In this document: in pieces, positions 1 to 1,546 of the stretch
How positions within the stretch are numbered: position 1 is the stretch's first letter
How the letters are laid out: every line of letters begins with the position of its first letter
DNA from: Chloroflexota bacterium
Lineage (GTDB): Bacteria > Chloroflexota > Anaerolineae > Aggregatilineales > Phototrophicaceae
DNA: 6,013 nt
Assembly (NCBI GenBank): GCA_023392115.1
Contig: JAEVZT010000610.1
Span: 1 to 6,013 of the forward strand
Direction of reading: 5' to 3'
Notes under the pieces: generated by a model
The model's database searches: none
Told to the model about the DNA's origin: nothing
Seen by the model: the letters and a program-made list of their open reading frames with translations, nothing else
Program-made: the position numbers and the translations under genes

Positions 1-847
1 CCGACGTCCATTCGCCTTCGAGCACATCCATCACATCACGCAGCGGTTCCGTTCCGGCAGCCGTGCGGAATGCGTCTTTGACTTCATCCTCGCTTGTCTC
101 GCGCTCGACAACTGCCGTCACTTCGGCAATGCTGCCGGTGCGGGTCGGGACGCGGTACGCCTTACCCGTAATCTTCAGCTCGGGCCATACGAACAGCAGC
201 ACCTTCGCAGCGCCCGACGACGACGGGATAATGTTTTCGGTCGCCGCCCACGAGTCGCGCCGATCTTTAATCGGCTGATCGGTCAGCGCTTGACTGTTGG
301 TGTAGCTGTGCACGGTCGTGAACAACCCCGCCTTGATGCCGTAATTGTCCAGCAGCACCTTGACCACTGGCGCGAGCGCGTTGGTCGTGCAGCTGCCCAT
401 GCTGATAATCTTGTGCTCGTCAGGGTTGTACTGCTCGCGGTTGATTCCGGGCAGCAGCACGGCGTCGCAGTCTTGCAGCGTCTTGCTCGGCGCGCTGACG
501 AGCACGCGCTTCGCGCCGCAGTCAAGATGCGCCTGCGCCCCTGCCCGCGTGGTCGCGCGCCCCGTGCAGTCGACGACGAGATCGACGCCGAGCGCGCCCC
601 AGTCAGGCAGTTCGTCCTTTGTATTGAAGTAGGCGACCTCGCGCCCGCCGATATTGAAACCGCTGTCAGTAGCTGTCACCGGCTCGTGCCAGCGCCCGTA
701 GTTCGTATCGACCTCGAACACTGCCGCCAGCGTCGGCACGTCCCGGATGTCCGAAACCGAAAATGGGCTGAACAGGTTCCCCTTGAGAGCCGCTTTGACT
801 GTCGAGCGCCCGATGCGCCCGAAACCGTGAACTGCTATCTTGCCCAT
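1..847 (-). CDS. gap: Type I glyceraldehyde-3-phosphate dehydrogenase, 3' end cut by window edge
   Basis: This gene encodes NAD(P)-dependent glyceraldehyde-3-phosphate dehydrogenase, which oxidatively phosphorylates glyceraldehyde 3-phosphate to 1,3-bisphosphoglycerate in cytosolic glycolysis or gluconeogenesis. I translated 282 residues from the ATG at 847-845, and the usual length is about 330-340, so some 50 C-terminal residues lie outside. The Rossmann start is HGFGRIGR (residues 7-14). The catalytic motif is SCTTNALAP with nucleophile Cys153, followed by TVHSYT with His180, SSSGAAK (210-215) and RVPTRTGS (232-239). Asp33 sits at the usual NAD-discriminating position. An AGGT at 854-857 lies 6 nt upstream of the start. 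Oddities are Ala in place of the common second Cys (CTTNC), and DRRDSWAATENIIP in place of the usual RRARAAA-NIIP. These point to a divergent GAPDH subgroup. Erythrose-4-phosphate dehydrogenase is possible but less likely. It is transcribed away from the lysine operon. Confidence 0.93.
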   Translation of the reverse strand, partial: MGKIAVHGFGRIGRSTVKAALKGNLFSPFSVSDIRDVPTLAAVFEVDTNYGRWHEPVTATDSGFNIGGREVAYFNTKDELPDWGALGVDLVVDCTGRATTRAGAQAHLDCGAKRVLVSAPSKTLQDCDAVLLPGINREQYNPDEHKIISMGSCTTNALAPVVKVLLDNYGIKAGLFTTVHSYTNSQALTDQPIKDRRDSWAATENIIPSSSGAAKVLLFVWPELKITGKAYRVPTRTGSIAEVTAVVERETSEDEVKDAFRTAAGTEPLRDVMDVLEGEWTS

Positions 848-975: not shown

Positions 976-1005
976 TTGACAGACGCGCTATGGTTGCCCT
1001 ATGCT
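976..1005 (+). promoter_or_regulatory. Sigma70-type promoter of the lys leader and operon
   Basis: A perfect -35 box TTGACA (976-981) is separated by 18 nt from a -10 box TATGCT (1000-1005). Transcription would start near 1012, about 19 nt before the first leader ORF, which matches the short untranslated lead expected of an attenuated operon. No comparable promoter is seen between the leader and lysW, so transcripts should pass through both terminators to reach the structural genes. The call is based on consensus match and position. Confidence 0.75.
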
Positions 1006-1030
1006 TACGTTGTCGCATGAGGAGCAGTTC

Positions 1031-1084
1031 ATGATCAGCGTCAATTTCACCAAGAAAGCGAAGAAGCACATCCCCGAACCCTAG
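1031..1084 (+). CDS. Lysine-rich leader peptide 1 (17 aa)
   Basis: The ORF encodes MISVNFTKKAKKHIPEP and ends with TAG at 1082-1084. A strong Shine-Dalgarno GAGGAG (1019-1024) lies 6 nt upstream of the ATG, so translation is well supported despite the small size. Four of 17 codons are Lys, packed as AAG AAA GCG AAG AAG (1052-1066), and there is no Arg codon. The proteins of the downstream operon contain only about 1% Lys, so this cluster is far above background. The Lys codons also form one strand of an RNA hairpin (1053-1064 with 1093-1104), and the stop codon directly abuts the antiterminator strand. I infer a ribosome-mediated attenuation sensor whose translation, not its product, matters. 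A functional small protein cannot be excluded but has no support. Confidence 0.85.
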   Translation: MISVNFTKKAKKHIPEP

Positions 1085-1104
1085 TCCGGGCGTTTTCGCT
1101 TTCT
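1053..1104 (+). promoter_or_regulatory. Attenuator 1, hairpin 1:2 (pause / anti-antiterminator)
   Basis: AGAAAGCGAAGA (1053-1064), which lies inside the Lys codon run of leader 1, pairs with TTTTCGCTTTCT (1093-1104). This gives 12 pairs with a single G-U. A nested CCCG:CGGG pairing (1073-1076 with 1087-1090) can stack inside. The helix traps strand 2 of the antiterminator, so without translation, or after ribosome release, the terminator is favoured. A ribosome stalled on the Lys codons would melt it. Pairings were read by hand and no folding energies were computed. Confidence 0.75.
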
Positions 1105-1146
1105 CGATGAAATGACGCGAAGCAGTCGAAACAGAAGCCGCCCGGA
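1085..1146 (+). promoter_or_regulatory. Attenuator 1, antiterminator 2:3
   Basis: TCCGGGCG (1085-1092) pairs perfectly over 8 bp with CGCCCGGA (1139-1146). The helix continues after a 5-nt bulge as GCTTT (1098-1102) with GAAGC (1134-1138), including one G-U. It consumes the 5' arm and part of the loop of the downstream terminator, so the two structures exclude each other. Strand 2 starts at the first base after the leader 1 stop codon, where a terminating ribosome would cover it. Confidence 0.78.
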
Positions 1147-1163
1147 AGGGCGGTTTTTTTTTT
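1138..1163 (+). terminator. Intrinsic terminator 1 (attenuator 1, stem 3:4)
   Basis: CCGCCC (1138-1143) and GGGCGG (1148-1153) form a 6-bp all-GC stem closed by a GGAA loop of the GNRA type. It is followed immediately by ten T (1154-1163). This is a textbook Rho-independent terminator, oriented on the plus strand and lying upstream of the whole lys operon rather than after a gene. That position is best explained by transcriptional attenuation. Confidence 0.9.
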
Positions 1164-1182
1164 GGCAGTACAGGTTGAGATG

Positions 1183-1260
1183 ATGCACACATTCGTCTTG
1201 TTCAACGACAGCCAGAAAAAGCAGAGCAAGTGCAAGAAGCCGGACACGCCGTCTGGATAG
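1183..1260 (+). CDS. Lysine-rich leader peptide 2 (25 aa)
   Basis: This second small ORF lies between the two terminators. The core reads FNDSQKKQSKCKKPD, with five Lys among 25 residues (codons at 1216-1221, 1228-1230 and 1234-1239) and no Arg. The stop TAG is at 1258-1260. The ATG at 1183 has AGGT (1172-1175) 7 nt upstream. An adjacent in-frame ATG at 1180 would be only 4 nt from it and is less likely. The ORF shares no clear sequence with leader 1 apart from Lys richness, so it does not look like a recent duplication. Its last codons (1248-1257) double as the antiterminator strand. A ribosome reaching the stop would mask that strand, while one stalled at the first Lys pair would leave it free. 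Confidence 0.8.
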   Translation: MHTFVLFNDSQKKQSKCKKPDTPSG

Positions 1261-1267
1261 CTGCGTT
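1204..1267 (+). promoter_or_regulatory. Attenuator 2, candidate hairpin 1:2
   Basis: AACG (1204-1207) and CAGC (1209-1212) pair with CGTT (1264-1267) and GCTG (1260-1263), leaving A1208 bulged. CAGA (1213-1216) then pairs with TCTG (1252-1255) across a 4-nt bulge. The helix ends at the first base of the first Lys codon and occupies part of antiterminator strand 2. It is less regular than the equivalent helix in attenuator 1, so I hold it with less confidence. Confidence 0.5.
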
Positions 1268-1305
1268 TGCGTATGCACCGTGTACCGCACCGCCGTCCAG
1301 ATGGC
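1248..1305 (+). promoter_or_regulatory. Attenuator 2, antiterminator 2:3
   Basis: GCCGTCTGGA (1248-1257) pairs with TCCAGATGGC (1296-1305) over 10 bp with one G-U. A short TGCG:CGCA helix (1262-1265 with 1286-1289) can close the intervening segment. The pairing takes most of the 5' arm and the loop of terminator 2, so antitermination and termination are mutually exclusive. Strand 2 ends immediately before the leader 2 stop codon, where it is sensitive to ribosome position. Confidence 0.75.
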
Positions 1306-1331
1306 ATCCGTCTGGACGGCGGTTTTATTTT
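1290..1331 (+). terminator. Intrinsic terminator 2 (attenuator 2, stem 3:4)
   Basis: CCGCCGTCCAGA (1290-1301) and TCTGGACGGCGG (1311-1322) form a perfect 12-bp stem. It can extend by a U-G and two G-C pairs to a very small loop, and it is followed by TTTTATTTT (1323-1331). This strong Rho-independent terminator ends 41 nt before the lysW start codon, so the operon would be silent unless it is bypassed. Confidence 0.92.
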
Positions 1332-1372
1332 CCGCAAAGCCCGTCTTGAGAACCGTTTGAGGAGAGCGAACC

Positions 1373-1546
1373 ATGTCGAATACGGTCATTTGCCCCGAAT
1401 GTGAAGCCGATGTCCCCCTGCCCGCCGGCGTCATGCAGAACGAGCTGATCGCCTGCCCCGACTGCGGCCCGGAGCTGGAAGTCATCAGCCTTGACCCGCT
1501 CGAAGTCGATCTCGCGCCGGAAATCGAAGAGGACTGGGGAGAATAA
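1373..1546 (+). CDS. lysW: LysW, amino-group carrier protein for lysine biosynthesis
   Basis: LysW is the small acidic carrier whose C-terminal Glu gamma-carboxylate is linked to the amino group of alpha-aminoadipate. It protects that group and offers a negatively charged handle to the later enzymes. The 57-residue product has two zinc-ribbon CxxC pairs, CPEC (7-10) and CPDC (28-31), an Asp/Glu-rich second half and the family-diagnostic C terminus EDWGE with Glu57 last. Length and ending match the known family. It contains no Lys at all. The Shine-Dalgarno GGAG (1361-1364, within GAGGAGAG) lies 8 nt before the ATG. It is the first structural gene after two attenuators, and lysX begins one nucleotide after its stop. 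The ORF is too short for many automatic gene callers. Confidence 0.96.

What the first reader, a model, noticed from the sequence alone, without database searches (positions are those of the whole stretch)
976..1372. Tandem attenuators in series in front of one operon
One promoter is followed by leader-terminator-leader-terminator before lysW. Each transcript must pass two lysine checkpoints, which would multiply the repression ratio and could sharpen the response. Tandem riboswitches and tandem T-boxes are known. Two serial leader-peptide attenuators for the same amino acid are, as far as I know, rarely if ever described. A different number and spacing of Lys codons (KKAKK versus KKxxKxKK) could tune each unit to a different level of charged tRNA-Lys.
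Basis: inference. Interest (0 to 1): 0.9.

Follow-up and report, generated by a model that had tools for sequence, protein, structure and literature searches.

The report
Two lysine attenuators in series
In front of a bacterial lysine-making operon lie two complete lysine-codon leader-plus-terminator units in a row, a layout also found in 28 related genomes; each unit is predicted to stop transcription when lysine is plentiful, so the pair would act as a double lysine checkpoint.

Summary
A predicted promoter (976-1005) is followed by leader ORF 1 (KKAKK), terminator 1, leader ORF 2 (KKQSKCKK), terminator 2, then lysW. Each unit has an antiterminator that competes with its terminator; it covaries strongly in unit 1 (17 cells changed on both sides, shuffled mean 5.5) and is conserved with weak covariation in unit 2. 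The units are distinct types: a unit 1 model scores 44 bits or more in 67 of 81 lysW loci, a unit 2 model 49 bits or more in 29 of 81, and each of those 29 also has unit 1 upstream. Promoter-like sequence precedes unit 1, not unit 2. Tandem arrays with other peptides occur before lysW elsewhere in the class, and one genome has a tandem pair before homocitrate synthase. Folding predicts unlike defaults: untranslated, unit 1 mostly terminates, unit 2 often reads through. Classical attenuation is known; two serial leader-peptide attenuators for one amino acid did not appear in what I saw of nine literature searches. The nearest case, Salmonella mgtCBR, senses two different signals. There are no expression data; multiplied repression and a sharper response are inferences.

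The parts
976..1005 (+). predicted sigma-70-type promoter, TTGACA / TATGCT, spacer 18
   Evidence: z 3.8 against shuffles
1019..1024 (+). ribosome-binding-like GAGGAG before ORF 1
   Evidence: sequence
1031..1084 (+). leader ORF 1, MISVNFTKKAKKHIPEP*
   Evidence: each of the four core Lys codons kept in 24 to 26 of 26 aligned sequences
1044..1113 (+). unit 1 protector stem, arms 1044-1067 and 1090-1113; pairs the Lys codons and hides the antiterminator strand
   Evidence: pairing counts
1085..1092 (+). unit 1 antiterminator strand TCCGGGCG, pairs with 1139-1146
   Evidence: covariation; staged folding
1133..1163 (+). terminator 1 (stem 1133-1158 and T run)
   Evidence: covariation
1180..1260 (+). 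leader ORF 2, MMHTFVLFNDSQKKQSKCKKPDTPSG* (start 1180 or 1183)
   Evidence: alignment
1248..1258 (+). unit 2 antiterminator strand GCCGTCTGGAT (end of ORF 2), pairs with 1295-1305
1289..1331 (+). terminator 2 (stem 1289-1323 and T-rich tail)
   Evidence: covariation
1373..1546 (+). lysW, carrier protein
   Evidence: TIGR01206 54.3 bits (cut-off 53.2); PF21344
1548..2435 (+). lysX
   Evidence: TIGR02144 338.5 bits
2432..3466 (+). argC/lysY-type reductase
   Evidence: TIGR01850
3463..4281 (+). lysZ, [LysW]-aminoadipate kinase
   Evidence: NF010659 279.7 bits
4278..5477 (+). lysJ/argD-type aminotransferase
   Evidence: TIGR00707
5464..6013 (+). start of an M20 peptidase family gene, likely lysK
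   Evidence: PF01546; the name lysK is inferred from position

Best explanation
Upstream of lysW lie two complete leader-ORF-plus-terminator units in series behind one predicted promoter, and each likely works as a ribosome-stalling lysine attenuator, so that RNA polymerase would reach the lysine genes only by passing both. Shown by sequence and comparison: the order of parts, the conserved Lys codons, the two competing structures in each unit, and the conservation of the units as two distinct types. Inferred: when charged tRNA-Lys is short, the ribosome stalls at the Lys codons, the antiterminator strand stays free and pairs with the 5' arm of the terminator, and transcription goes on; when lysine is ample, the ribosome reaches the stop codon, covers that strand, and the terminator forms. 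Predicted by folding: unit 1 has a protector stem and terminates if untranslated, whereas unit 2 of the window has none and would read through if untranslated. If the units act independently, read-through of the pair is the product of the two and their logarithmic sensitivities add.
For: Two-unit calls in 31 of 81 real, 0 of 81 reverse, 0 of 243 shuffled regions. Unit 1 antiterminator: 87.2% of cells paired, at most 49.5% when slid; 17 cells changed on both sides, shuffled mean 5.5. Unit 2 antiterminator: 94.6% paired, at most 54.8% when slid; 3 cells changed on both sides, shuffled mean 0.8. Both terminators covary. Mean antiterminator duplex energy, own against other loci against shuffled: unit 1 -16.5, -13.6, -10.7; unit 2 -19.9, -15.4, -12.8 kcal/mol, 30 loci each. 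Geometry: antiterminator strand at least 70% free with the ribosome at the last Lys in 30 of 30 first and 26 of 30 second units; at least 70% covered at the stop codon in 30 of 30 second units. Folding of 28 loci: antiterminator probability over 0.5 with the ribosome at the last Lys in 28 of 28 first and 23 of 28 second units, at the stop in 5 of 28 and 0 of 28. Promoter-like sequence before unit 1 only. A further tandem pair before a homocitrate synthase gene.
Against: No transcript, termination or expression data. Ribosome-binding matches of 4 or more bases are modest: 19 of 28 (unit 1) and 20 of 28 (unit 2), against 38% and 44% of shuffles. At the stop codon the ribosome covers 70% of the extended unit 1 duplex in only 13 of 30 loci, and in 5 of 28 first units (L022, L028, L030, L038, L039) the antiterminator still forms in that state. 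In 5 of 28 second units (L025, L038, L039, L060, L063) it is not predicted with the ribosome at the last Lys. Terminator 1 of L019 and terminator 2 of L068 were missed by the caller and look poor. In the other tandem arrays of the class (14 loci) the duplex energies exceed controls less clearly: -18.4 against -15.8 and -15.2, and -20.2 against -17.0 and -15.9. Coupling of transcription and translation in these bacteria is assumed.
Confidence: 0.84

Rival explanations
1. Only one unit works: unit 1 is the true attenuator and unit 2 an accessory or decaying unit, or the reverse.
For: Many relatives manage with unit 1 alone: 38 of 81 loci were labelled single, and at the thresholds used no locus has unit 2 without unit 1.
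Against: Unit 2 is found in 29 of 81 loci, its terminator covaries, its antiterminator is conserved, and in the window its stem is the stronger one (-31.7 against -17.2 kcal/mol). Tandem loci are spread over the LysX tree; the three states need 10 changes.
Confidence: 0.1
2. The two units belong to alternative promoters, so that some transcripts meet only the second checkpoint.
For: Four of 30 tandem loci (L013, L058, L063, L078) exceed z 1 for a promoter-like site before unit 2.
Against: Before unit 2 the mean score is below shuffles, and 4 of 30 exceed z 1 against 18 of 30 before unit 1. The gap between units is 17-76 nt in 28 loci. The test uses approximate E. coli promoter weights recalled from memory.
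Confidence: 0.05
3. The hairpins are ordinary terminators or a source of small RNAs, and the Lys-rich ORFs have another role.
For: No function has been measured.
Against: Antiterminators are conserved in both units; most variation in the core Lys codons of unit 1 is AAA/AAG; in the 81 loci all matches at the thresholds used lie just upstream of lysW.
Confidence: 0.03

Closest known systems
Classical leader-peptide attenuation (trp and his operons of enterobacteria; recalled; theory in PMC1183508, passages seen)
   Same: Short ORF with codons for the product amino acid, antiterminator against terminator, protector stem in unit 1.
   Different: Two complete units in series; lysine; Chloroflexota; unit 2 of the window has no clear protector.
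Tandem attenuators of Salmonella mgtCBR (PMC3641672, abstract and passages seen)
   Same: Two short leader ORFs in one leader transcript.
   Different: There the ORFs respond to ATP and proline, two different signals, and the paper calls it a singular example; here both ORFs carry Lys clusters and each unit has its own intrinsic terminator.
Leader-peptide control of the Thermus thermophilus lysine cluster (recalled; searches did not find the paper)
   Same: Lysine leader peptide before genes of the LysW route.
   Different: As recalled a single unit; I could not check this.
Tandem T-boxes and tandem riboswitches for one ligand (PMC12452182 and PMC9413887, passages seen)
   Same: Two sensors in a row for one signal; a pseudo-cooperative response is expected.
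   Different: The sensor here would be a translating ribosome, not an aptamer. No Rfam family matched the window.
rimP-leader with a second, upstream terminator in several Gammaproteobacteria (PMC2965389, passages seen)
   Same: Two terminators in tandem, the extra one with a potential antiterminator.
   Different: Not described there as a leader-peptide system.

Membership tests
Ribosome-mediated (leader-peptide) transcription attenuation | Short leader ORF enriched in codons for the operon's product | tested here: met
   Median 4 Lys (unit 1) and 5 Lys (unit 2) over 28 loci; in the class sample Lys gives the most regions with two or more units, 14 of 103, next Arg 9 and Ala 5
Ribosome-mediated (leader-peptide) transcription attenuation | Intrinsic terminator between leader ORF and genes | tested here: met
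Ribosome-mediated (leader-peptide) transcription attenuation | Antiterminator that excludes the terminator | tested here: met
   covariation strong in unit 1, weak in unit 2
Ribosome-mediated (leader-peptide) transcription attenuation | Stall at regulatory codons frees, and ribosome at the stop covers, the antiterminator strand | tested here: met
   Met in the window and most loci, by geometry and folding only; exceptions in 5 of 28 first and 5 of 28 second units
Ribosome-mediated (leader-peptide) transcription attenuation | Protector (1:2) stem | tested here: inconclusive
   Without a ribosome the antiterminator is suppressed in 26 of 28 first units, but forms in 16 of 28 second units, the window's included
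Ribosome-mediated (leader-peptide) transcription attenuation | Expression rises on limitation of the amino acid through the leader | not testable with these tools
   needs an experiment
Tandem attenuators of the mgtCBR type | Two leader ORFs responding to two different signals | tested here: not met
   Judged by codon content: both ORFs carry Lys clusters
Lysine riboswitch or T-box | Match to the Rfam family | tested here: not met
   no family at gathering score in the window

The most novel reading that the evidence does not exclude
A two-gate lysine controller with opposite defaults: gate 1 terminates unless a ribosome starts its leader and then stalls on Lys codons, gate 2 reads through unless a ribosome finishes its leader. 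Together they would open only when translation is running and lysine is short, and would reject false induction by a general loss of translation. The serial design recurs in the class with different peptides and also stands before homocitrate synthase, which suggests repeated selection for double lysine checkpoints.
Probability: 0.3. Interest if true: 0.8.

Novelty: new variant of a known kind. Interest (0 to 1): 0.66.

Why it matters
Serial sensors for one ligand are known for riboswitches and T-boxes, where a pseudo-cooperative response is expected. A ribosome-based counterpart would test whether evolution sharpens attenuation by adding whole units instead of more codons. Tandem and single arrangements in close relatives give natural pairs for the experiment.

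Tried and rejected
Rfam gave no family in the window. The window's own genome is not held, so other lysine genes of that organism could not be examined. Lysine riboswitch and T-box were set aside for lack of a match. That unit 2 senses another amino acid was set aside: its peptide has at least 3 Lys in each of 28 aligned loci, and Lys ranks first in the class sample. That unit 2 is a recent local copy of unit 1 is not supported: on the unit 2 model, unit 2 scores 49-121 bits and unit 1 at most 36 bits. A weak cross-match remains, so an old duplication is possible.

Corrections by eye: the first unit called in L003 is spurious; L019 and L068 are tandem though the caller gave one unit; the unit 1 frame of L001 was set by hand. 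L065, L072 and L073 were labelled none on the tree though the caller gave one unit each. In the class sample the first unit of L179 looks spurious. From the listed LysW matches I took 109: those of 73 bits or more and three of 51-57 bits; weaker rows were dropped, and the list itself was capped.

Limits of what I saw: the output was cut, so contexts of some loci were not seen; only part of the 124 genomes were looked at in context. Two literature searches listed 20 of 149 and 20 of 155 papers. In PMC4833913 and PMC1262725 I saw passages only.

Full report
What is there. The window holds lysW, lysX, an argC/lysY-type gene, lysZ, a lysJ/argD-type gene and the start of an M20 peptidase gene, with a divergent glyceraldehyde-3-phosphate dehydrogenase gene upstream. 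This is the LysW-dependent aminoadipate route to lysine (pathway knowledge). The closest relatives found are metagenome-assembled Anaerolineae of the Chloroflexota; the nearest LysX is 80% identical. Between the divergent gene and lysW lie, in order, a promoter-like site, leader ORF 1, terminator 1, leader ORF 2 and terminator 2.

More than chance. One caller was applied to up to 550 nt upstream of lysW in the window and 80 loci. It gave two units in 31 of 81, one in 42 and none in 8. Reverse strands gave none with two and one with one; 243 dinucleotide shuffles gave none with two and two with one. After correction by eye 32 of 81 are tandem: 30 of the window's kind and two (L078, L079) with other peptides.

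Two types. Covariance models were built from 26 unit 1 and 28 unit 2 sequences. Over the window and 80 loci, the unit 1 model scores 44 bits or more in 67 of 81, and the unit 2 model 49 bits or more in 29 of 81. Each of the 29 has unit 1 upstream. L068, judged tandem by eye, reaches only 31 bits with the unit 2 model and has no unit 1 match. Of the 29, 28 were in the training set, so the scores show that the types are distinct, not independent discovery; L019 was not in it and scores 78.7 bits.

Structure. The unit 1 antiterminator pairs 87.2% of cells against at most 49.5% when slid, with 17 cells changed on both sides against 5.5 in shuffles. The unit 2 antiterminator pairs 94.6% against at most 54.8%, with 3 cells changed on both sides against 0.8; its support is conservation more than covariation. 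Both terminators covary. The unit 1 protector pairs 75.2% of cells, at most 58.5% when slid, with modest covariation. The shuffles ignore relatedness, as the tool warns.

Ribosome positions. In the window, a ribosome at the last Lys codon of unit 1 leaves 1085-1092 free, and one at the stop codon covers it. For unit 2 most of 1248-1258 is free at the last Lys and covered at the stop. Over 28 tandem loci, folding with the ribosome at the last Lys gives the antiterminator in 28 of 28 first and 23 of 28 second units; at the stop in 5 of 28 and 0 of 28. Without a ribosome it forms in 2 of 28 first units and 16 of 28 second units (Wilcoxon p 3.4e-4). So the two units are predicted to differ in default state. 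Against a general rule: in 38 single-unit relatives the lone unit 1 forms the antiterminator without a ribosome in 39%. The call folds partial transcripts at equilibrium and is not a kinetic model.

One promoter. In 30 tandem loci the best promoter-like score averages 8.5 before unit 1, 3.2 before unit 2 and 5.0 before lysW; z against shuffles is 1.48, -0.48 and 0.16. Terminator 1 to ORF 2 spans 17-76 nt in 28 loci.

Spread. On a LysX tree of 81 rows (32 tandem, 38 single, 11 none) the states need 10 changes, shuffled mean 34. Inner branches are often weak, so gains and losses cannot be told apart firmly. The singles keep unit 1. Class-wide, a LysW profile was searched in 160 genomes, 124 of which had a match. 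I took 109 of the listed lysW matches; 103 upstream regions were fetched, ten of them cut short by contig ends, and six loci were already held. Of the 103, 14 had two units, 19 one and 70 none; reverse strands gave 0 with two and 5 with one. One of the 14 (L179) looks spurious. The six held loci are all tandem. The peptides include kinds other than the window's, such as a KSKK type followed by a KRAKK type (L205, L237, L241, L247, L253) and KQQKKAKK followed by KKKCKKAK (L191, L234). Other residues also give regions with two or more units there (Arg 9, Ala 5, Ser 4, Pro 4 of 103), so the caller has a background in these sequences. The unit 2 model matches 124 of 396 class genomes at E 1e-3 and 14 of 301 phylum genomes at E 1e-6; the unit 1 model matches 28 of 396 at E 1e-4. 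Not all of these matches stand before lysW, and only some were examined.

A second operon. Single Lys units precede genes that look like homocitrate synthase by eye in other genomes (L107, L116, L149, L151).

What is known. Nine searches of the open library showed no tandem leader-peptide attenuators for one amino acid in the listings and passages that I saw. PMC3641672 describes tandem attenuators for two signals and says that normally a single attenuator controls such genes (passages). PMC12452182 states that tandem riboswitches of one ligand are expected to be pseudo-cooperative (passages). Most subscription papers are not in the library, so absence there is weak evidence.

Verdict. Multiplied repression and a sharper response would follow if both units act independently, but I found no measurement of either.

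Noticed in passing
L141 1402-1677: Tandem Lys leader-terminator units upstream of a homocitrate synthase gene, in a genome that also has tandem units before lysW.
   Followed up: yes
L222, L223, L233, L238, L243, L252, L255 (upstream of lysW): Leaders with mixed Arg and Lys codons (RRARAKR, RARKRAKR and the like) in genomes where two LysX-like genes lie side by side: 7 of 11 such loci, two of the 11 cut short, against 15 of 92 others with the same loose test. The operon may make both amino acids and sense both.
   Followed up: partly
L140 minus strand 1513-1648, L139 1769-1904: Leader with four Arg in a row (FFPRRRRSSR) before a terminator; in L140 it stands upstream of an argC-like gene, perhaps an arginine attenuator.
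   Followed up: no
L185, L192, L214, L225, L227, L229 upstream of lysW: A group with two hairpins and a conserved ORF ending in GPDGSPVLT; Lys content too low for the caller in most, not explained.
   Followed up: no
L005, L011, L013: Terminator 2 to lysW is 169-253 nt, against 39-86 nt in the other 25 tandem loci compared; the extra stretch is not explained.
   Followed up: no
L147 minus strand 1505-1752: Leu-rich short ORF (LLDLLILL) and terminator before another gene.
   Followed up: no
window 2-847, minus strand: Divergent glyceraldehyde-3-phosphate dehydrogenase gene (PF00044, PF02800).
   Followed up: no
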